A stretch of DNA of 40,659 nt from Acidimicrobiia bacterium (GTDB taxonomy: Bacteria > Actinomycetota > Acidimicrobiia > Acidimicrobiales > AC-14), in NCBI GenBank assembly GCA_023265025.1, contig JAHFUP010000042.1, positions 1 to 40,659 of the forward strand, in the 5' to 3' direction. Shown here piece after piece: positions 1-40,659 of this stretch. The position numbers and the translations under genes were made by a program. Within the stretch, counting starts at the first letter, position 1. Every line of letters starts with the position of its first letter. The notes below the pieces were generated by a model, which worked only from the letters and a program-made list of their open reading frames with translations, did no database searches and had not been told where the DNA came from.

Positions 1-19
1 TCATCGGAAACTATCTCGC
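1..19. repeat. Terminal direct repeat (copy 1), circular closure
   Basis: The first 19 bases are identical to the last 19 bases (40641-40659). The gene order continues across the join: an HNH gene ends at 47 and the small terminase gene starts at 40590 on the same strand. This is what a circular or circularly permuted assembly gives when one k-mer is left at both ends. A true 19-bp phage end repeat would be unusually short, so I read it as an assembly overlap. Confidence 0.9.
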
Positions 20-6927: not shown

Positions 6928-7436
6928 GCGAACACCACGACCCCGCCGCCGGCGGCCAGCTCGAACGCCTTCGTGAAGTCACGGTAGACACGCACGAAGT
7001 AGTCGGCTCCGACGTCCTCCCATTCGGGGAAACCAGTGGTGCCGAAACCAGTGGGGGGCGCGTGTTCGATGAAGTCTGCCGCGAGGTTGGCGCTGGTCCG
7101 AGGCCCGATGGCGCCGGCGCTGTCGGTGAAATTGATCAGCTCTACGAACGGCTGCCCGCGGTAGTTGTCAGGGGAGGCCCACACTTCTGCCGGCGGCACG
7201 CGCAGCATGAGCAGGCTCAGGCGCCGGCGCCACCGGTTGTACGACCCGTACGACCCAGCCCAAAAGTGGAAGATCTCCCCTTGTGGCTCGTACCATCCTG
7301 GTGCAAGACCGTCCAGCCGCTCCGGGTAGTCCTGGCCGTGGACTAACCAGTGATCTTCGTCGTGCTCTCGCTTGCCGGCGAACCAGTGCGGGCACACGAA
7401 CCTGGCGCGGCTGGCCGCCTTCACTGTGAGGCCCAC
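6924..7436 (-). CDS. Conserved hypothetical protein, 170 residues
   Basis: Starts GTG (VGLTVKAASRARFVCPHW). Notable stretches are CPHWFAGKREHDEDHW, FHFWAGSYGSYNRWRRRL, QPFVELINFTDSAGAIGP and, near the end, FTKAFELAAGGGVVVF. The AGSY-G-YN-WR followed by PFVELINF-D--G-IGP pattern recurs in conserved proteins of phages and plasmids whose function is unknown. The GTG overlaps the stop of the repeat protein, and its own stop overlaps the RlpA-like start. It is probably a soluble alpha/beta protein. Confidence 0.7.
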   Translation of the reverse strand: MGLTVKAASRARFVCPHWFAGKREHDEDHWLVHGQDYPERLDGLAPGWYEPQGEIFHFWAGSYGSYNRWRRRLSLLMLRVPPAEVWASPDNYRGQPFVELINFTDSAGAIGPRTSANLAADFIEHAPPTGFGTTGFPEWEDVGADYFVRVYRDFTKAFELAAGGGVVVFA

Positions 7437-7900
7437 TATGACTCCTCCACTCGTGTGAACTTGTGGTCGGCGTCGAGGCGGTAGGCCACGTTGGGCTCGA
7501 TCCCATCCTCGCCCGGGTAGGCGATCTCTGTGCGGTGCCGGTCGCCGCTGTCGTCCCACCACCGAATAGCGATCGTGCCCTTGTCGCCGGCGGTGGCCTT
7601 GCCTCTGTCGCCGGCGGTGGCCGTGCCCCTGTAGCCGGCGGTGGCCGTGCCCCAGTCGCCGGCGGTGGCCGTGCCCTCGTAGCCGGCGGTGGCCGTGCCC
7701 CTGTAGCCGGCGGTGGCCGTGCCCCTGTCGCCGGCGGTGGCCGTGCCTCTGTCGCCGGCGGTGGCCGTGCCCCTGTCGCCGGCGGTGGCCGTGCCCCTGT
7801 CGCCGGCGGTGGCCGTGCCCCTGTCGCCGGCGGTGGCCGTGCCCCTGTCGCCGGCGGTGGCCGTGCCCTCGTAGCCGCCGGCGGCCGTGCAGTTGTCCAT
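7436..7900 (-). CDS. Beta-solenoid octapeptide-repeat protein
   Basis: A 154-residue protein. After MDNCTAAGGYE come about 12 tandem octapeptides of the form G-T-A-T-A-G-[DY]-[RWEK] (residues 12-107), then a non-repeat C-terminal domain (IRWWDDSGDRHRTEIAYPGEDG, PNVAYRLDADHKF). Octapeptides of this A-G-Y-x-S/G-T-x-T type form beta-solenoids like those of ice-nucleation proteins. Similar small repeat proteins with the same WWD...YRLDA tail occur in other phages, with unknown role. The regular Thr/Ala/Gly ladder suggests a stacking or ice/ligand-binding surface. The ATG at 7900 directly follows the RecT-like stop. Confidence 0.8.
   Translation of the reverse strand: MDNCTAAGGYEGTATAGDRGTATAGDRGTATAGDRGTATAGDRGTATAGDRGTATAGDRGTATAGYRGTATAGYEGTATAGDWGTATAGYRGTATAGDRGKATAGDKGTIAIRWWDDSGDRHRTEIAYPGEDGIEPNVAYRLDADHKFTRVEES
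7580..7867 (-). repeat. 24-bp tandem repeat array encoding the octapeptides
   Basis: About 12 head-to-tail units of 24 bp inside the solenoid gene. On the plus strand most read gtggccgtgcccctgtcgcc plus ggcg, with small variations (tcg/tag and c/t changes). The near identity at DNA level shows recent expansion or homogenisation by slippage or recombination, so copy number is likely to vary between relatives and may be collapsed in assemblies. Confidence 0.95.
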
Positions 7901-8791
7901 CTACTCCCCCAGCCAGTCGAGCATGTCGGCTTCGAGCTGCTCGTCGGCGATCTCGGCCATTGACGCCGGCGCCGGCAGGCCGCGTCCACTGGCGAACTCG
8001 GCGGCGGCCGCCAGCATCCGCTCCCGGCTGATGTCGTGCTTGGCGGCCAGCGCCTGCCAGTCCGGGCGACCATCCGGCGTGCGTGGCGTGGACTCGGCCG
8101 CCGACGGGCCATCCTCGACGAGCTCGCCGTCGACCACGTCCTCGTCGGTGTCGCTGAGGTCGGCCAGGACCACCCGGCCGGCGTCGGTCATGGCGTAGCT
8201 CTGAGGTGGGGGCATGCCGAGCATGGCCTCTGGGCACACCCGGTTGGCGCAGCGGGTCCCAGCCCTGGCCACGAGCATGTCCCGCGTGAACCTGGCGTAG
8301 GTCTCGACGGCCACTTCCTTGCCATCCTTCTTCGACCACCGCTTCGTCAGACCTCCACGGATGGCGTCCTCGAGCGTGAACGTGACGCTGTGGACGATGC
8401 TGCTCCCCTTGCGCCGACCGCACACGGTGGCGGACTCGTGCGACTCCCGGGAGACCCACAGCTCATGGCCATGGGCATGGATCTGCGCGGCGATGAGCTG
8501 GTACATGAAGCCGACCGTGCCGTTGACGATGTAGACGAGCTTCAAGGTGGCCGGCGTGAGGTCACGCCCGATGGATGCCAGGACGATGCCGGCGGCGGCG
8601 ATCTCAGCTTCGGCCTGCTCTACGGACTTCTCCGGGAGCCACGGCTTGGCGTGCGCCGCCGACACCGGCTTGTAGGCGTCCGGGATCCACGACACCCGGG
8701 CCAGCCGCTTGGCGACGCGGTCGATCGTGTCGAGACGCTCCTGTGTCAGCGTCGATATCGCTCCCTCGTAGACGACTGGTGCCATGCTCAT
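7901..8791 (-). CDS. RecT-like single-strand annealing protein
   Basis: A 296-residue protein. The order of motifs fits RecT-family annealases: an N-terminal helical segment (LARVSWIPDAYKP), EAEIAAAGIVLASIGRDLTP, then LVYIVNGTVGFMYQLIAAQI and GHELWVSRES (the 'i.Gkp.......... aGH.iw' block), VTFTLEDAIRGGL, and RFTRDMLVARAGTRCANRVC with AMLGMPPP (the usual 'ml.aRA....fpdvi.G' block). An acidic tail follows (DLSDTDEDVVDGELVEDG). RecT proteins pair complementary single strands for phage recombination. No RecE-type exonuclease or SSB gene is visible nearby. ATG at 8791 by ATGA overlap. Confidence 0.75.
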   Translation of the reverse strand: MSMAPVVYEGAISTLTQERLDTIDRVAKRLARVSWIPDAYKPVSAAHAKPWLPEKSVEQAEAEIAAAGIVLASIGRDLTPATLKLVYIVNGTVGFMYQLIAAQIHAHGHELWVSRESHESATVCGRRKGSSIVHSVTFTLEDAIRGGLTKRWSKKDGKEVAVETYARFTRDMLVARAGTRCANRVCPEAMLGMPPPQSYAMTDAGRVVLADLSDTDEDVVDGELVEDGPSAAESTPRTPDGRPDWQALAAKHDISRERMLAAAAEFASGRGLPAPASMAEIADEQLEADMLDWLGE

Positions 8792-9572: not shown

Positions 9573-9721
9573 GGCCATCCCCAGATCTGCTCGAGTGCCT
9601 CGTGCGCCGGCGCCGGCCGGCGCCGCGAGCGGGCCCGCTCGTCGATGCGGCCCAGCACGTAGCCGAGCAGCGTTCCGCCGGCGCCGGCGATGGTGGCGCC
9701 CAGGATGAGGACGACGGTCAT
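9569..9721 (-). CDS. Small single-pass membrane protein (50 residues)
   Basis: MTVVLILGATIAGAGGTLLG, then YVLGRIDERARSRRRP. It has an N-terminal Gly-rich hydrophobic segment (residues 2-24) followed by a basic cytoplasmic tail (N-out, C-in by the positive-inside rule). The ATG overlaps the stop of the paralog pair upstream. No family is recognised. The Gly-rich helix could pack as an oligomer. Confidence 0.6.
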   Translation of the reverse strand: MTVVLILGATIAGAGGTLLGYVLGRIDERARSRRRPAPAHEALEQIWGWP

Positions 9722-9909
9722 TCGCCAGCCTCTGGTGGCAACTGCATCTTGTACACCATGGCCCATGTGGACCAGTCAGACGTATCGGCGTTCCGTTCAT
9801 TTCTGGCGGCGACAGCCTCGGCCTGGGAGCGGAAGATGCCGATGGGCTCGCTGGCGACCGCGCAATGCCGGCATCCCTCGTCGATGACGACCCACACCCA
9901 CTCGGTCAT
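9718..9909 (-). CDS. Tandem paralog 2, WVWVVIDEG family
   Basis: A 63-residue protein (MTEWVWVVIDEGCRHCAVAS). It is clearly paralogous to the gene just upstream (9906-10112): both share W-V-W-V-V-I-[DN]-E-G, a Cys-containing loop, EP[IV]GIFR, an Ala/Glu helix and W-A-[MR]-VY-[KR]-MQLP. The pattern looks like a small beta-alpha-beta domain. Function unknown. ATG at 9909 is chosen over the longer reading frame because it overlaps the upstream stop (ATGA). Confidence 0.7.
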   Translation of the reverse strand: MTEWVWVVIDEGCRHCAVASEPIGIFRSQAEAVAARNERNADTSDWSTWAMVYKMQLPPEAGE

Positions 9910-9921
9910 GCCGACTGCCCG
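9906..9921 (-). repeat. Stop/start junction repeat, copy C
   Basis: Plus strand tcatgccgactgcccgag (18 bases, shared with 10109-10126). It encodes the last residues LGQSA and stop of the upstream gene and the ATGA start of the next. Confidence 0.85.
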
Positions 9922-10112
9922 AGGTCTGGCAACTGCATCCGGTACACCCTGGCCCATGTGCATGCTTGGCGGCGAGGCCCGGCATTGGCGTTCAGTGCGC
10001 CGGCGGCTTCCTCTGCCTCGGCCTCGGTGCGGAAGATGCCGACGGGCTCATCACTGATCCCGCATTCCTCGCTGCCCTCGTTGATGACGACCCACACCCA
10101 CTGGTCGATCAT
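9906..10112 (-). CDS. Tandem paralog 1, WVWVVINEG family
   Basis: A 68-residue protein (MIDQWVWVVINEGSEECGIS) paralogous to the next gene downstream over its whole length. It ends in ...QLPDLGQSA; the last residues and the following ATGA are part of a junction sequence also present at the ends of the two genes upstream. The similarity plus the repeated junction indicate tandem duplication. Function unknown. The small size and aromatic strand suggest a compact protein-binding domain. Confidence 0.7.
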   Translation of the reverse strand: MIDQWVWVVINEGSEECGISDEPVGIFRTEAEAEEAAGALNANAGPRRQACTWARVYRMQLPDLGQSA

Positions 10113-10124
10113 GCCGACTGCCCG
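10109..10124 (-). repeat. Stop/start junction repeat, copy B
   Basis: Second copy of tcatgccgactgccc, ending the 62-residue Cys-rich gene (KLGQSA, stop) and starting paralog 1. Confidence 0.85.
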
Positions 10125-10297
10125 AGCTTCGGGAACGTCCGGTAGCCGACTGCCCTTTTACCTCCAGCACGCTCGGCAACCTCGGCCCGAGCCCAACGTG
10201 CCCAGCCACCACAGTCACAGTCACGGAAGTCGCCTGATCCGTGCGCGGGACAGCGAAGGTCATCGCAGGGCGCCCGGTACGCGCCGAATGCCGTCAT
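10109..10297 (-). CDS. Cys-rich hypothetical protein (62 residues)
   Basis: MTAFGAYRAPCDDLRCPAHG is followed by CDCGGWARWARAEVAERAGG and a tail ending KLGQSA. C-x4-C-x2-H and C-x-C could form a zinc knuckle. ATG at 10297 by ATGA overlap. Its last codons and stop form the second copy of the junction repeat (10109-10124). Confidence 0.65.
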   Translation of the reverse strand: MTAFGAYRAPCDDLRCPAHGSGDFRDCDCGGWARWARAEVAERAGGKRAVGYRTFPKLGQSA

Positions 10298-10308
10298 GCC
10301 GACTGCCC
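10294..10308 (-). repeat. Stop/start junction repeat, copy A
   Basis: Third copy (15 bases, tcatgccgactgccc), ending the 56-residue gene (WLGQSA, stop) and starting the Cys-rich gene. Confidence 0.85.
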
Positions 10309-11766: not shown

Positions 11767-12080
11767 GAGTCGCCAGCCCGAACGCCCATAATGTCCGATA
11801 TGTAAAGCCGGATTCCGGCGCCGGGGGGCGGGCTGTCCGTGTTGCTGTCTGACATTATAGCGTCGTCCGGCGGCGTCCACACATACCCACATGTGCACGA
11901 GACGCGACGACCAGTTCCGGTGGTGGCGATGTGCTCGAAGCCGTCGGGCATCTTCCTGTGTTCCCGGCCGCTGTCGGCAGCGTGCGCCGGCCCGAGATCG
12001 CACGGCTCCACACCGATCCGCCAGCGCGCCTCGACGAGCGTCTCGCCCCGGAGCACAGCGCTGACGAGCTTGGGCTTCAC
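11763..12080 (-). CDS. Hypothetical protein with CTCGYVW motif
   Basis: A 105-residue protein starting GTG (VKPKLVSAVLRGETLVEARW). It has a middle segment IATTGTGRRVSCTCGYVWTP, similar to Cys-Gly-Tyr/Phe-x-Trp knuckles in small phage proteins, and an acidic, Pro-rich tail. A TATAAT hexamer at 11853-11858 (minus strand) lies within it, but I see no matching -35. Second gene of the leftward operon; function unknown. Confidence 0.6.
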   Translation of the reverse strand: MKPKLVSAVLRGETLVEARWRIGVEPCDLGPAHAADSGREHRKMPDGFEHIATTGTGRRVSCTCGYVWTPPDDAIMSDSNTDSPPPGAGIRLYISDIMGVRAGDS

Positions 12081-12280
12081 GCCGCCGCGCCGATCCCGAG
12101 GGCCGTGGCCCAGCCACGGAGGGTGTTGGTCGTGACGTCGATGCGGTACTCGACGTAGAGGCGGCGGGCGGTGGTCTCCCACGAGCCGGTCTCTTGGTAG
12201 ATGTCGGCCAGGATCTGCTCGAGGTTGCCGCCGGCGAGCTGGTCGGCCATCCGGTACTGCGGTGATCGAGGAGCGACCAT
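12077..12280 (-). CDS. Small HTH-type DNA-binding protein, first gene of leftward operon
   Basis: A 67-residue protein. ILADIYQETGSWETTARRLY followed by VEYRIDVTTNTLRGWATALG reads as a helix-turn-helix of the kind 'h..lY.e.gSw..vA..L...yGi.vs..TLr.Wa..lGI'. I chose ATG at 12280 rather than 12292 because it lies exactly seven bases after a good -10 box, where a leaderless actinobacterial transcript would start. As the first gene leaving the divergent promoter region it is a strong candidate for autoregulation of both promoters. Confidence 0.65.
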   Translation of the reverse strand: MVAPRSPQYRMADQLAGGNLEQILADIYQETGSWETTARRLYVEYRIDVTTNTLRGWATALGIGAAA

Positions 12281-12287
12281 GTCCAGC

Positions 12288-12317
12288 ACCATACGCCCGC
12301 CGGCGCCGGCCTGTCAA
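12288..12317 (-). promoter_or_regulatory. Leftward promoter, probably leaderless
   Basis: On the minus strand TTGACA (plus 12312-12317) is a perfect -35 hexamer. After an 18-base spacer comes TATGGT (plus 12288-12293), and seven bases further is the ATG at 12280. That spacing puts the transcription start on or next to the ATG, as in leaderless actinobacterial genes. It drives the first gene of the long leftward chain. Confidence 0.65.
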
Positions 12318-12340
12318 CGGGTTTGTTGGCGAGATTGTTG

Positions 12341-12369
12341 TTGACTGGCGGTGCCGGATGAGATAGTCT
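12341..12369 (+). promoter_or_regulatory. Rightward promoter, probably leaderless
   Basis: TTGACT (12341-12346), 17-base spacer, TAGTCT (12364-12369), then six bases to the ATG at 12376. No ribosome-binding sequence fits between, so the mRNA likely begins at the ATG. The two -35 boxes (here and at 12312-12317) are back to back and form an inverted repeat GTCAAC ... GTTGAC. The TTGTTG repeats between them (12323-12340) are possible operator sequence. Confidence 0.65.
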
Positions 12370-12375
12370 ACTCAC

Positions 12376-12744
12376 ATGACAACGACAGCAACCGCCACCC
12401 ACGTCCACTCCGCAGCAGCCACGCAGACGACGCCATTCGTCGGGTGCGTCGCCGGGCCGGAATGCTGCGCTCACTCCCACGGAAACGTGGCCATCACCGC
12501 GACGTGCTCCTGTGGTTGCCGGCGTGCCAGCAACCACAACCAGGGCTACGCCGAGTACGGCCCGTGGGCCCGGTTCATCCCGGGACGGGAGCCGGCGCCC
12601 CGCTTCGTCGTGCGACGGGTCGGCGATGGGTGGATGGGCCAGTACGACAAATGGGAGGTCGTCGAAGTCGCCACTGGCGCAGTGCGGAGCACCCACCACG
12701 CACGGTCGCACGCCGAGGTCAGCGCCGAGCTGGCGAACCGATGA
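12376..12744 (+). CDS. Cys/His-rich small protein, first gene of rightward operon
   Basis: A 122-residue protein. It has a Thr/Ala-rich start (MTTTATATHVHSAAATQT), a metal-like cluster (GCVAGPECCAHSHG ... TCSCGCRRASNHNQGYAEYG), then a beta-like segment (RFVVRRVGDGWMGQYDKWEV) with a helical end. The CSCG-x-R-R-x-NHNQG block recurs in phage and actinobacterial small proteins of unknown role. It has its own promoter directly at the start codon. Its stop overlaps the next gene's ATG (ATGA). Confidence 0.7.
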   Translation: MTTTATATHVHSAAATQTTPFVGCVAGPECCAHSHGNVAITATCSCGCRRASNHNQGYAEYGPWARFIPGREPAPRFVVRRVGDGWMGQYDKWEVVEVATGAVRSTHHARSHAEVSAELANR

Positions 12745-12775
12745 CCGCCGGCGACTGGCCGCTCGGCGCCGGCGA
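12738..12775 (+). repeat. 38-bp exact direct repeat, copy 1 (gene start region)
   Basis: Identical base for base to 13256-13293. It spans the last codon and stop of the upstream gene (CGATGA), the overlapping ATG, and the first eleven codons (MTAGDWPLGAG) of the DUF4326 gene. Confidence 0.95.
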
Positions 12776-13262
12776 TTCCCGCCCTACCATGACCGCTCCG
12801 CAGCGCATCCAGATGCGCCGGGCGAAGGGATGGCGCAAGCCCGAGGGAGTGATCTACGTCGGCAGGCCTGGCCCGTACGGCAACCCGTTCCGCGATTCGA
12901 GCTGGCTGATGTGGATGTCCATCGCCCTCGGCCTTCGTGCCGACCGTCCTGGGCGACACCGGGCAGCCGTCCTGCTCCATCGGTCGTGGCTCACAGGCCA
13001 GCCTGTTCGGCTCCGAGAGTACGACGCGATCTCCAATGCCGAGTACGACGGCGGGTCAATCGAGTTCGGCGACGGATCTACCCTGTCGATGGGAGATCAC
13101 GTCGCTGGGATCGCCGCGTTTTCAGCATCACTATACGAGGCGCCAGTGCTCCCGGAGCGTCCCGACCTTGCACCGCTCCGCGACCGCGACCTTGCCTGCT
13201 GGTGCCATGCCGACCAGCCGTGCCACGCCGACACGCTCATCGACCTGGCGAACCCCCGATGA
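12741..13262 (+). CDS. DUF4326-domain protein
   Basis: A 173-residue protein. The family core begins RIQMRRAKGWRKPEGVIYVG and continues GPYGNPF; it ends with LRDRDLACWCHADQPCHADT, matching DUF4326 (the 'r..gw..P.g..yvgRp..wgNPf ... L.gk.LaCwC.p..CHad' pattern). The first 16 residues (MTAGDWPLGAGDSRPT) are not part of the domain: they are the N-terminus of the next gene, copied by a 38-bp repeat. Met17 (ATG at 12789) looks like the ancestral start. DUF4326 proteins are found in many phages; the role is unknown, and a nucleotide- or metal-binding enzyme is possible given the CWC...CH motif. Confidence 0.8.
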   Translation: MTAGDWPLGAGDSRPTMTAPQRIQMRRAKGWRKPEGVIYVGRPGPYGNPFRDSSWLMWMSIALGLRADRPGRHRAAVLLHRSWLTGQPVRLREYDAISNAEYDGGSIEFGDGSTLSMGDHVAGIAAFSASLYEAPVLPERPDLAPLRDRDLACWCHADQPCHADTLIDLANPR

Positions 13263-13293
13263 CCGCCGGCGACTGGCCGCTCGGCGCCGGCGA
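13256..13293 (+). repeat. 38-bp exact direct repeat, copy 2 (gene start region)
   Basis: Second copy of the repeat at 12738-12775, covering the stop of the DUF4326 gene and the start of the HTH gene. Here the encoded MTAGDWPLGAG runs straight into the HTH domain, so this copy looks ancestral. Confidence 0.95.
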
Positions 13294-13735
13294 GATCGCC
13301 GATCGCCTCGGCGTCTCACGCGGCACCATCTACAACCGGCGCAGCCGCGGCGACTTCCCGCCGCCCGACGGCGTGGTCGGCGGCAACCCTGCGTGGTGGC
13401 CGGCCACCATCGACGAGTGGGTTGGGGCGCGTCGTCGGATCGCCCAGGAGAGGGCGCGCCGGAGCGCCCAGCAGGAGGGAGCGTACCACCGCCGCTGGCG
13501 ATTAGCCGCCCAAGGCCTGCTCGACGACGTCGACGACGAGCGGACAGCCGATGCGGTCATGTCCGTGCGCCGCCTCGGCGGCGCGAGCACGGACGACGGC
13601 ACGCCATGGGGGCCGGCGGCGAACAGCCTGGCCCGGAGCGTGGCCGATGCCGTCCGCGACAACCCGCCGGGCGCCGTCGTCGAGCTCCCATCGCCCGTCC
13701 CCTTCGTCCGACACATCCTCGTGGTGCCGGAGTAG
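13259..13735 (+). CDS. HTH (MerR/Xis/AlpA-like) DNA-binding regulator
   Basis: A 158-residue protein. Residues 12-50, EIADRLGVSRGTIYNRRSRG followed by DFPPPDGVVGGNPAWW and ATIDEW, form a winged-helix excisionase/AlpA-type DNA-binding domain, with the typical '..P.P....g....W....i..W' wing. A charged helix follows (RIAQERARRSAQQ), then a C-terminal region ending VPFVRHILVVPE. As last gene of the short rightward operon opposite the main leftward chain, it may control the early/late switch. No integrase is present, so an excisionase role is unlikely. It ends three bases from the convergent lysis-region gene. Confidence 0.75.
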   Translation: MTAGDWPLGAGEIADRLGVSRGTIYNRRSRGDFPPPDGVVGGNPAWWPATIDEWVGARRRIAQERARRSAQQEGAYHRRWRLAAQGLLDDVDDERTADAVMSVRRLGGASTDDGTPWGPAANSLARSVADAVRDNPPGAVVELPSPVPFVRHILVVPE

Positions 13736-13738
13736 GGG

Positions 13739-14149
13739 CTACGCCGGCGAGGCCTGCTGCACGACGCTGAGCCGGCGGTCACGGTCGTCGACGGGGATCT
13801 CATCGACCGGCGGTGACTCAGCGCCGGCGGGAGGCTCGGCATCACCGAGCCGGTTGGCGGTCTGCCCCCAGTCGCCGATGTACACGCGCCATGCCCCGCC
13901 GGTGTAGACGATCACTCCGCCGATGAACCACTGGCCGTAGCCGCCGAACTCGCTGATCCACTCGTAGTCCTTGACCGGCGGCCCGAGATCGCGGCACTCG
14001 AAGCCCCACGACTTGTAGGTCTGGTAGACCCCACCGCCGACCCAGTGAACGCCGAAGCGGGGCGTGTAGTAGTAGGTCCCCTGGCCGGGAACGCCGTACC
14101 ACTGCGTGTCAGCTCGGCACACGCTCTGCGACCATGCGTTATCGGCCAT
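13739..14149 (-). CDS. LGFP-like cell-wall-binding protein
   Basis: A 136-residue protein, last of the leftward late chain. It contains repeated aromatic/Gly units resembling LGFP repeats: YGVPGQGTYYYTPRFGVHWV, GGGVYQTYKSWG, DLGPPVKDYEWISEFGGYGQ and WFIGGVIVYTGGAWRVYIGDWG. LGFP repeats occur in actinobacterial wall proteins and are thought to attach to the mycolyl-arabinogalactan layer. The tail is acidic and Pro-rich. No signal peptide is visible, so it would need lysis, a holin or the virion to reach the wall. A lysis accessory or wall-binding partner of the endolysin is the likeliest role. Confidence 0.65.
   Translation of the reverse strand: MADNAWSQSVCRADTQWYGVPGQGTYYYTPRFGVHWVGGGVYQTYKSWGFECRDLGPPVKDYEWISEFGGYGQWFIGGVIVYTGGAWRVYIGDWGQTANRLGDAEPPAGAESPPVDEIPVDDRDRRLSVVQQASPA
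14136..14148 (-). repeat. 13-bp stop/start junction repeat, copy 1
   Basis: TGGCCGATAACGC on the minus strand. It holds the end and TAA of the membrane gene (...GR stop) and the first codons (ADNA) of the LGFP-like gene. The identical 13 bases occur at 14329-14341. Confidence 0.85.
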
Positions 14150-14342
14150 CGTTCACTTCCTGTTGTGCAGCCTGCCGGCGCCAAGGAAGCTGGGCGAGAG
14201 CCAAGGCGCAGAGTCCGATGACGATCAGAAGGCCGACGTTCGGGCCGTGGATCGACGAGGCGGCCATGCCTAGGGCAGCGAGTTCGCACAACACGGCCAC
14301 GTTGGCGAGCCGCCTCTTGACCCGTCGAGCGTTATCGGCCAC
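14139..14342 (-). CDS. Small membrane protein in the lysis region (67 residues)
   Basis: Starts GTG after a good ribosome site (GAGGAG, five bases before). VADNARRVKRRLANVAVLCE leads into two hydrophobic segments (about 13-30 and 36-52, including GLLIVIGLCALALAQLPW), followed by a charged tail. The ending ALALAQLPWRR resembles the end of the other small membrane protein at 16337-16495 (AFALGHLPWMR). Holin-like topology is possible. The gene is bracketed by the 13-bp junction repeat. Confidence 0.65.
   Translation of the reverse strand: MADNARRVKRRLANVAVLCELAALGMAASSIHGPNVGLLIVIGLCALALAQLPWRRQAAQQEVNDGR
14329..14341 (-). repeat. 13-bp stop/start junction repeat, copy 2
   Basis: TGGCCGATAACGC on the minus strand, carrying the end and TAA of the 68-codon ORF upstream (...GR stop) and the start of the membrane gene. 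It matches the copy at 14136-14148, so both flanks of the membrane gene have the same stop/start junction. Confidence 0.85.
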
Positions 14343-33742: not shown

Positions 33743-35020
33743 CTAGATCCCCACCAGCGCCGAGTCGAGCTCGAACGTGGTCTGTGCCGTGGCGCCATTG
33801 ACGTAGCGAGCACGGACGTACGGCATGGCGATGATCGACTCCAGGATTTGGCCCGCCGCGCCACCAGCGACAGCCGCCGAGATGGTCTCGTACCATGCGG
33901 TTCCGTCGCGACTCTGCTGCACGCTCAGTGTGCCCGTATGGCTGCTCGCTGCGAATGCACGAAACAGGGAATAGCCGGCGGCCGGCCGGGGTGCGCCGTT
34001 GACCGCTGCGCCGCCGGCCAACGGGGTCGAGGGCTCCGGGAGCATCGCCGGCGACGGAACTGGGAGCCCGGCGGGCAGCATGAGCGCCGAGTCGAACTCG
34101 AATGTGGTCTGTGCCGAGGCGCCGTTGACGTAGCGAGCACGGACGTACGGCATGGCGATGAGCGACTCCAGGACCGTCCCCGTCGCCCCGCCGGTGACAG
34201 CCACCGAGGTGGGGGTCTCGTACCAGGTCGTACCGTTGCGACTCTGCTGGATGCTGAGGGTGCCCGACTGGTCGCTCGACGCGAAGGCACGGAACAGCGA
34301 GAAGCTGCCCGCCGTGCGGGTAGCGCCGTTGACGGCGGCGCCGCCGGCCAGCGGGGTCGACGTCTCCTGGAACATCGATGGCACCGGCGTCGATTGCCCA
34401 TCAGCAGAACGCCGGTAGCCCCACACTCCCACGGTCATGCCGGACGGGGCGTAGACCTTGATCGTCGACGTCACCACGGGGATGTACGTGGGCACGTCGT
34501 CAGGACACTTGACGCCGGTGGATGCGGACGGGGCACCGCCGAAGGGATCGGCTCGGGCCGTGAGGCCGGCGCCGGTGGCGTGGACCACGGCGAGCTGCAC
34601 GGGCGCAGGGAAGGTGAAGGTGAGCACGCCGCCGGCGCCGGACTGGTCGGCGAGCACGTCCCCTGTCTGGTAGTCGTCACGGACGGCGGGAGGAGCAGCC
34701 CTGAGCTGCGCGTCCGTGATCCCGCTGGTGGCCACGACCCCGCTTACGGGGACTGGGATGGCCCGGAGTTGAGCGTCCGTCAGGCCATTGGACGTCGCTC
34801 CGGTCACCTGGACCGGTGCGGCCCGGAGTTGAGCGTCCGTCAGGCCATTGGACGTCGCTCCGGTCACCTGGACCGGTGCGGCCCGGAGTTGAGCGTCCGT
34901 CAGCGGCCCCGTGACAGGGACCGTGCCGGTGACACCGTCGACGGTGACGTGGCCGACTTGTCGGGCCGGGCGGTCGGAGACGTCGACCGTGCCACCCGGC
35001 CCGACAATGACAGCGCCCAC
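33743..35020 (-). CDS. Fibre/decoration protein with TDAQLRA repeats and duplicated domain
   Basis: A 425-residue protein. I chose GTG 35020, four bases after the previous gene; upstream in-frame sequence overlaps the capsid. Residues about 34-115 hold four copies of [LI]-TDAQLRA-x-P-x-x-V, seen in many phage structural proteins. The C-terminal half contains two tandem copies of a ~95-residue domain (each with TPLAGGAAVNGA..., FRAFA, QQSR-GT-WYET, IAMPYVRARYVNGA-AQTTFE), separated by LPAGLPVPSPAMLPE. These look like small sandwich domains exposed at the particle surface. Confidence 0.65.
   Translation of the reverse strand: MGAVIVGPGGTVDVSDRPARQVGHVTVDGVTGTVPVTGPLTDAQLRAAPVQVTGATSNGLTDAQLRAAPVQVTGATSNGLTDAQLRAIPVPVSGVVATSGITDAQLRAAPPAVRDDYQTGDVLADQSGAGGVLTFTFPAPVQLAVVHATGAGLTARADPFGGAPSASTGVKCPDDVPTYIPVVTSTIKVYAPSGMTVGVWGYRRSADGQSTPVPSMFQETSTPLAGGAAVNGATRTAGSFSLFRAFASSDQSGTLSIQQSRNGTTWYETPTSVAVTGGATGTVLESLIAMPYVRARYVNGASAQTTFEFDSALMLPAGLPVPSPAMLPEPSTPLAGGAAVNGAPRPAAGYSLFRAFAASSHTGTLSVQQSRDGTAWYETISAAVAGGAAGQILESIIAMPYVRARYVNGATAQTTFELDSALVGI
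34761..34902 (-). repeat. 60-bp tandem repeat in the TDAQLRA region
   Basis: 34761-34820 and 34821-34880 are the same 60 bases, and the first 22 bases repeat again from 34881. Each unit encodes one LTDAQLRAAPVQVTGATSNG segment. The perfect identity shows a recent duplication. Confidence 0.95.
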
Positions 35021-40640: not shown

Positions 40641-40659
40641 TCATCGGAAACTATCTCGC
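40641..40659. repeat. Terminal direct repeat (copy 2), circular closure
   Basis: Exact copy of bases 1-19. The window therefore overlaps itself, and the non-coding gap 40591-40640 joins to 20-46. Confidence 0.9.

What the first reader, a model, noticed from the sequence alone, without database searches (positions are those of the whole stretch)
12738..13293. DUF4326 gene inserted between two exact copies of a 38-bp gene-start sequence
12738-12775 and 13256-13293 are identical. The repeat carries a stop/ATGA junction plus the codons for MTAGDWPLGAG. In the HTH gene these residues run directly into the DNA-binding domain; in the DUF4326 gene they are followed by an extra ATG (12789) where the conserved domain starts. 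The simplest reading is that the DUF4326 gene was dropped into the junction before the HTH gene, and the HTH gene's own start was copied in front of it, giving the newcomer a translationally coupled start.
Basis: partly seen in the sequence, partly recalled or inferred. Interest (0 to 1): 0.68.

Follow-up and report, generated by a model that had tools for sequence, protein, structure and literature searches.

The report
Phage gene bracketed by copied gene-start
In an unfamiliar phage genome, one gene (DUF4326) begins with a letter-for-letter copy of the start of the gene that follows it, a likely scar of gene shuffling at gene junctions, and the same layout turns up in several other phages.

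Summary
12738-12775 and 13256-13293 are identical over 38 bp; the next best place in the window differs at 12 positions. Each copy spans a stop/ATGA junction; across a 3-nt gap 11 of 12 upstream bases also match. The leader is native to the HTH gene: PLGAGE falls in the family's conserved start, seen in 17 of 34 loci with remote homologues. None of 73 other DUF4326 ORFs carries MTAGDWPLGAG. So the HTH start was copied in front of DUF4326. Which gene is the newcomer stays open, because no close relative of this phage was found. The predicted single-copy empty site could be checked only in an analogue: mycobacteriophage Flathead gene 80 lies between two 20-bp junction copies, while Jabbawokkie lacks the gene and has one copy there. 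The architecture recurs, and Island3/Brujita is a published precedent (PMC3029335). The phage encodes a RecT-like protein. Best reading: a recombination seam at a coupled gene junction, probably reversible by a 518-bp deletion. A new member of a known kind.

The parts
12376..12744 (+). Cys/His-rich small protein gene (122 aa), upstream partner; ends ELANR*
   Evidence: no Pfam match at E 1, PHROG only at E 0.029; no relative; only E 2-5 matches
12726..12737 (+). 12-nt upstream extension of repeat copy 1 (11 of 12 identical to 13241-13252 across a 3-nt gap)
12738..12775 (+). 38-bp repeat, copy 1: stop of Cys/His gene, ATGA overlap and leader MTAGDWPLGAG fused to DUF4326
12741..13262 (+). DUF4326 gene as read from the coupled ATG (173 aa)
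   Evidence: Pfam PF14216 58.2 bits against cut-off 25
12789..12791 (+). native-looking DUF4326 start ATG (MTAPQRIQ; relative L050 starts MTAPKRIQ)
12776..12788 (+). 13-nt stretch between repeat copy 1 and the native-looking start: the presumed illegitimate left seam
   Evidence: sequence
13241..13252 (+). upstream extension of repeat copy 2, in the conserved LAN end of DUF4326
13256..13293 (+). 38-bp repeat, copy 2: stop of DUF4326, ATGA overlap and start of the HTH gene
13259..13735 (+). HTH gene (158 aa), PHROG 597 DNA-binding / excisionase-like; native owner of the leader
   Evidence: (4.8e-14); Pfam HTH_17 24.6 bits, below cut-off 27
7901..8791 (-). RecT-like single-strand annealing protein, candidate recombinase
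   Evidence: phrog_4171 E 5.2e-17
9906..10308 (-). second junction-repeat family: GGGCAGTCGGCATGA at 10308-10294, 10123-10109 and 9920-9906, three consecutive stop/ATGA junctions

Best explanation
The repeat is a recombination scar at a translationally coupled gene junction. SHOWN: the first 11 codons of the HTH gene, with its stop/ATGA junction, are duplicated exactly in front of DUF4326, in frame with it; the leader is native to the HTH family and absent from the other DUF4326 proteins examined. INFERRED: exchange between related phages joined the HTH start (after codon 11) to DNA just upstream of the native DUF4326 start by an illegitimate left seam, while the right seam lies in the shared HTH-start sequence. 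DUF4326 thereby came under the coupled start of its neighbour and gained a 16-residue leader. The 38-bp direct repeat is longer than the minimal pairing lengths quoted for Red beta and RecA, so recombination between the copies (by the phage RecT-like protein or host RecA) should delete exactly 518 bp and restore Cys/His-HTH with an intact HTH start: a single-gene cassette that can be lost cleanly.
For: Exact repeat, two copies only in the window. HTH polarity: [LV]GxxE[IV][AS]xxxG-type start in 17 of 34 loci with remote homologues. DUF4326 family start and end and no leader in 73 ORFs, best 5 of 11 matching residues. RecT-like gene. Pairing minima 23-27 bp (Red beta) and 31-34 bp (RecA) as quoted in PMC3945230 (passages). 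Joining the flanks at the repeat gives a continuous HTH reading frame. Same nested architecture in 7 of 10 surveyed junction repeats, this one included. Empty site in the Flathead/Jabbawokkie analogue: Jabbawokkie aligns to Flathead 93-413 and 603-1044, the two pieces overlapping in Jabbawokkie only in the 20-bp repeat. Published precedent Island3/Brujita (PMC3029335 section 13).
Against: No close relative of this phage with or without DUF4326 was found, so direction and steps are inferred. The upstream extension (1 substitution, one 3-nt gap in 15 nt) diverges more than the 38-bp core, which a single recent event does not predict neatly. In the survey, junction repeats exceed an independence expectation (8 of 47 against 0.72) but not clearly a control of 20-mers shared between different loci (both copies at junctions in 17 of 31 with at least one, against 8 of 12 within loci). 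Flathead's repeat contains a Shine-Dalgarno-like stretch and has further near-copies at neighbouring starts in its relatives; the window's does neither. Half of the remote HTH loci (17 of 34) do not show the start pattern.
Confidence: 0.62

Rival explanations
1. The DUF4326-HTH pair is the older arrangement and the Cys/His gene is the newcomer: a copy of the DUF4326-HTH junction (end of DUF4326 plus start of HTH, about 50 nt) ended up behind the Cys/His gene.
For: The match continues upstream into the ends of both genes (11 of 12). An LAN-type end is native to DUF4326 (63 of 73 ORFs), and a '...CCCCCGATGACCGCC' end occurs in another DUF4326 locus, L041.
Against: The upstream similarity is weak evidence (17 of 1653 gene-end pairs do as well in the stop-codon register). 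Cys/His proteins of this type may end in a similar way; no homologue was found to test it.
Confidence: 0.2
2. The HTH gene was duplicated in tandem and the body of the first copy was then replaced by or lost to DUF4326, leaving only its leader.
For: Tandem gene duplication exists in this genome (9718-10112 paralogues).
Against: Needs two events; no HTH remnant beyond 11 codons is visible.
Confidence: 0.1
3. The repeat is a functional element kept identical by selection: an RNA hairpin or a protein-binding site that regulates both genes alike.
For: The 38-nt start folds to -21.3 kcal/mol; its two copies rank first and second of 58 gene starts in the window; z -2.24. The HTH protein could bind DNA.
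Against: Only two copies, both coding; CGCCGGCG occurs 83 times in the window; the larger folds around the two copies differ; exact identity is explained by recent copying.
Confidence: 0.1
4. Assembly artefact at a short repeat.
For: The window is one whole contig of a 185-contig draft; reads were not available.
Against: Both copies sit in intact, coupled reading frames with coding-like third positions.
Confidence: 0.03

Closest known systems
Mycobacteriophage Island3 genes 67/68 compared with Brujita (PMC3029335, section 13 read)
   Same: One gene follows a 50-60 bp boundary sequence that is present twice; the relative without the gene has one recombinant copy; recombination by general enzymes is proposed.
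   Different: There the repeat is at the 3' ends of the genes; here the core is at the 5' ends and grafts a leader onto the bracketed gene. No Brujita-like relative is known here.
Short conserved boundary sequences of mosaic phages (introduction of PMC3029335, passage)
   Same: Homology confined to a gene boundary, unrelated genes beyond it.
   Different: Here two copies lie in one genome and mostly inside coding sequence.
Start-associated sequences (SAS) of cluster K mycobacteriophages (PMC3203893, passages)
   Same: Repeated sequence at gene starts.
   Different: SAS are 13 bp, 11-19 copies, just upstream of the start with an AGGAG core; here two 38-bp copies, mostly downstream of the start, no AGGAG.
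Flathead genes 79-80-81 / Jabbawokkie genes 90-91
   Same: Single gene bracketed by an exact junction repeat; the relative lacking the gene has one copy at that site.
   Different: 20-bp repeat containing a Shine-Dalgarno-like stretch; Jabbawokkie has another near-copy (1 mismatch) at the preceding gene start.

Membership tests
Boundary-repeat gene insertion (Island3 gp68 type) | Gene flanked by two near-identical copies of a gene-boundary sequence, unrelated sequence beyond | tested here: met
   flank identity 0.33 downstream and 0.38 upstream
Boundary-repeat gene insertion (Island3 gp68 type) | Relative without the gene has a single recombinant copy | tested here: inconclusive
   no close relative found; met only in the Flathead/Jabbawokkie analogue
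Start-associated sequence (cluster K) | About 13-bp AGGAG-containing sequence a few bases upstream of many starts | tested here: not met
   two copies only; no AGGAG in the 25 nt before 12741 or 13259
DUF4326 (PF14216) | Pfam score above curated cut-off | tested here: met
   58.2 bits against 25
DUF4326 (PF14216) | Predicted processing of phosphates of ADP-ribose derivatives (prediction in PMC9503650) | not testable with these tools
   passage read; a prediction there as well
HTH_17 (PF12728) | Pfam score above curated cut-off | tested here: not met
   24.6 bits against 27; PHROG 597 DNA-binding protein E 4.8e-14
Transposon insertion with target-site duplication | Transposase on the insert | tested here: not met
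   the insert holds only the DUF4326 ORF by Pfam
Transposon insertion with target-site duplication | Terminal inverted repeats of the insert | tested here: inconclusive
   one search lists an imperfect inverted pair, 12710-12734 and 13290-13314 (19 of 25 complementary), just outside copy 1 and at the end of copy 2; pairs that good at 400-700 bp spacing occur 18 times in the window, about one per 2.3 kb, so chance suffices

The most novel reading that the evidence does not exclude
Stop/ATGA junctions act as general docking seams in phages: single accessory genes enter and leave between duplicated junction sequences, using phage-encoded annealing proteins on 20-60 bp homologies, so that genes such as DUF4326 are reversible one-gene cassettes that borrow the translational start of their neighbour.
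Probability: 0.3. Interest if true: 0.6.

Novelty: new member of a known kind. Interest (0 to 1): 0.4.

Why it matters
It shows a concrete route by which phages may add a gene without breaking an operon: the coupled start of the downstream gene is duplicated, so the added gene can be translated at once and the old gene keeps its start. The direct repeat makes a sharp, cheap prediction (a precise 518-bp deletion), and such junction repeats may help to pick out recently shuffled genes in single genomes, without relatives.

Tried and rejected
Close relatives of the phage: none found with P0003, P0001 or RecT in IMG/VR; the capsid gave one 44% relative on a 4.1-kb contig; no near DNA match of a 10-kb stretch in phages; no P0003 match in phages at E 1; P0001 only four matches at E 2-5. 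DUF4326 itself has many distant relatives (24 loci, 62, 187 phage records), none with the surrounding genes (of 86 loci, no P0001 or P0003 match). Host relatives: P0001 and P0002 in 1 of 10 family genomes, the own one; P0003 in 2 of 3 genus, 19 of 298 order and 24 of 395 class genomes, the own one included, the others remote (identity 49% or less, mostly the HTH domain).

DUF4326 as a gene that is repeat-flanked in general: not supported; of 86 loci only L030/L060 (apparently one prophage held twice) had an exact repeat of 16 bp or more with a copy near the DUF4326 end, an 18-mer around a two-gene block; the script looked at the end only, and L102 has a junction repeat at the DUF4326 start. 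DUF4326-HTH as a conserved pair: not supported; HTH_17 in 3 of 76 and PHROG 597 in 2 of 76 proteins, this window included (75 neighbours from 81 distinct DUF4326 ends); P0003 matches none of the other 75.

L045 analogue (27-bp repeat): 295 genomes searched with its DNA; the two best, L210 and L211, match only from the second copy on and gave no clear empty site, so it counts neither way.

Survey caveats: loci were chosen for holding DUF4326, some overlap (same contigs with different flanks), and repeats were counted once per distinct sequence; genes are open reading frames, not annotations, except Flathead. The L204 and L144 cases among the 10 look like chance or out-of-frame ORFs. One gene start that I added by hand for (10306) was misplaced (true ATG 10297), so the third copy of the LGQSA junction was not compared there; the same wrong end was used for one protein, an alignment that was not used further. 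One DUF4326 ORF (L110) was flagged leader-like by a loose pattern: PVGAG just before its predicted start; not followed up.

Full report
WHAT IS THERE. The 38-bp sequences at 12738-12775 and 13256-13293 are identical and lie 518 bp apart. No other place in the window, on either strand, comes closer than 12 mismatches. At the level of gene starts, the run of identity across the start codon is 38 nt for this pair, 18 nt for the next pair and 9 nt for the next, among 1711 pairs of 59 starts. Each copy holds the stop of one gene overlapping the ATG of the next (ATGA) and the codons MTAGDWPLGAG. Upstream of the core, 11 of 12 bases still match if a 3-nt gap is allowed. Anchored at the repeat border, 148 of 200,000 random window pairs score as high; anchored at the stop codons the pair scores lower and 17 of 1653 gene-end pairs reach that. 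The original copied stretch may have been about 50 nt, or the two gene ends may resemble each other by chance.

SETTING. The window is a whole contig of a 5.4-Mb draft of 185 contigs and reads as a tailed phage: terminase, portal, head protease, capsid and tape measure, a RecT-like protein, a WhiB-like regulator and a DNA methyltransferase. In my simple gene call (58 genes) every gene is on the minus strand except the three-gene island 12376-13735: Cys/His protein, DUF4326, HTH protein. Its promoter was not identified (12000-14200, found only a minus-strand site and one terminator-like site at 12312-12331).

WHO OWNS THE LEADER. In remote homologues of the HTH protein from the host's order and class, the region matching residues 7-12 (PLGAGE) is the start of the domain, for example NPPVGLAEIADRLGV (L006), DLVGAGEIADRLG (L008), EPVGLAEIAARLGV (L116); 17 of 34 loci with a match have a [LV]GxxE[IV][AS]xxxG start, the other half do not. 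In DUF4326, by contrast, the family begins at the second ATG: window MTAPQRIQMRRAKGWRKPEG, relative L050 MTAPKRIQLRRTKGWRKPEG. Of 73 distinct DUF4326 ORFs, 72 have a recognisable RIQ/KGWRK start region, and in all 72 a start codon lies 1-34 codons before that motif. None of the 73 contains MTAGDWPLGAG; the best shares 5 of 11 residues. The HTH start was therefore copied in front of DUF4326, not the reverse. The reading frame runs through the 13-nt seam 12776-12788, so the product gains 16 residues. There is no evident Shine-Dalgarno sequence in the 25 nt before 12741, 12789 or 13259, which fits translation by coupling; this is inference.

No close relative of this phage was found in 50,697 phage records, IMG/VR or the host's relatives. 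The test could not be run on this locus, and which gene is the newcomer remains open. DUF4326 elsewhere has very diverse downstream neighbours (HTH_17 in 3 of 76; PHROG 597 in 2 of 76; both counts include the window), which leans towards DUF4326 as the travelling piece.

AN ANALOGUE WHERE THE TEST CAN BE RUN. A script over 167 sequences (2.18 Mb: L026-L111, L128-L207 and the window) found 99 distinct non-tandem exact repeats of 20 bp or more within 4 kb; 48 had unrelated flanks, and 10 of these 48 had both copies at a coupled or near stop/start junction. In 7 of the 10 exactly one ORF is nested between the copies with 4-nt overlaps to both neighbours: the window, L185, L102 (where the second copy is the start of DUF4326 itself), L045, one of two in L205, L189 and L163. 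L163 is mycobacteriophage Flathead, genes 79-80-81. Jabbawokkie lacks gene 80: it aligns to Flathead locus positions 93-413 and 603-1044, and the two pieces share in Jabbawokkie only the 20-bp repeat at 397-416; a further near-copy (1 mismatch) sits at the preceding gene start. Mosby's main alignment ends at Flathead 412, Goldilocks' ends at 622, Gandalph's begins at 605; the copies lie at 394-413 and 603-622. Near-copies of this sequence occur at other starts too, in Ogopogo, Goldilocks and Phanphagia. Of 40 listed records (an even sample of 548), 15 have an outer end of their match inside one of the two 20-bp copies (counted by eye; copies at query 294-313 and 503-522 of 851). There the repeat behaves as a seam.

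HOW STRONG IS THE SURVEY. With a stricter rule (overlapping NTGA only, 50 codons on each side), 8 of 47 repeats of 20 bp or more have both copies at junctions, against 0.72 expected if each copy were independent. A harsher control, 20-mers shared between different loci, gives both copies at junctions in 17 of 31 pairs with at least one, compared with 8 of 12 within loci. So shared sequences at junctions are common within and between phages, and part of that may be convergence on start signals. The loci were also selected for DUF4326. I claim recurrence, not a measured rate.

MECHANISM. Shown: duplication, polarity, frame, and the presence of a RecT-like gene. Inferred: exchange between related phages with an illegitimate left seam and a right seam in the shared HTH start. 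PMC3945230 (abstract and outline; passages) reports that phage Rad52-like recombinases drive mosaicism over short homologies and quotes minimal pairing lengths of 23-27 bp for Red beta and 31-34 bp for RecA. A 38-bp direct repeat is above both, so loss of 518 bp is expected; joining the flanks leaves the HTH frame intact. A transposon is unlikely: no transposase on the insert, and the one imperfect inverted pair near its ends (19 of 25) is of a quality met 18 times in the window at similar spacing.

FUNCTION OF THE CARGO. DUF4326 is predicted, not shown, to be a rhodanese-phosphatase-like enzyme acting on ADP-ribose derivatives (PMC9503650, passage) and to link NAD signalling with DNA modification or restriction (PMC7824862, passage). 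A small accessory operon with a counter-defence or regulatory role is plausible for the island; this is inference.

KNOWN OR NEW. PMC3029335 (section 13 in full; passages) describes Island3 gene 68: a single gene added next to a second copy of a sequence of about 50-60 bp at gene ends, one recombinant copy in Brujita, and calls it the first such event described in the mycobacteriophages. The present case is of that kind, at gene starts, with a grafted leader. Cluster K start-associated sequences (PMC3203893, passages) are different. My literature searches were made; no title or abstract start in their listings describes this locus, and I opened only the five papers named here.

A RIVAL WORTH A TEST. 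The duplicated 38 nt fold to -21.3 kcal/mol; the two copies rank first and second among 58 gene starts in the window, so a shared translational control element cannot be excluded.

Noticed in passing
window 9906-10308, minus strand: A second family of repeated stop/ATGA junctions: three consecutive genes end LGQSA* with GGGCAGTCGGCATGA; two of the genes in the row (9718-9909, 9906-10112) are paralogues.
   Followed up: partly
window 7502-7969: 24-bp tandem repeat array (copies fading at both ends), mostly inside the minus-strand ORF called at 7436-7900, coding for a repeated GTATAGDR.
   Followed up: no
window 1-19 and 40641-40659: The first and last 19 bases of the contig are identical, as in a complete circular or circularly permuted phage genome.
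   Followed up: no
window 34740-34919: 60-bp tandem repeat of three units (the third 63% alike) in the gene called at 33743-35020.
   Followed up: no
L045 4581-4607 and 4796-4822: 27-bp junction repeat bracketing a 72-aa ORF in a Streptomyces rimosus prophage, the same architecture as the finding.
   Followed up: partly
L030 5707 and 6337: 18-bp gene-start repeat bracketing a two-gene block (unknown gene plus DUF4326) in a Xylanimonas locus.
   Followed up: partly
L102 1220 and 1477: 30-bp repeat, mostly the end of the upstream ORF, whose second copy runs into the DUF4326 start at 1501; an 86-aa ORF lies between.
   Followed up: no
L110, just before DUF4326 start 5019: PVGAG-like residues directly before the predicted DUF4326 start, perhaps chance.
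   Followed up: no
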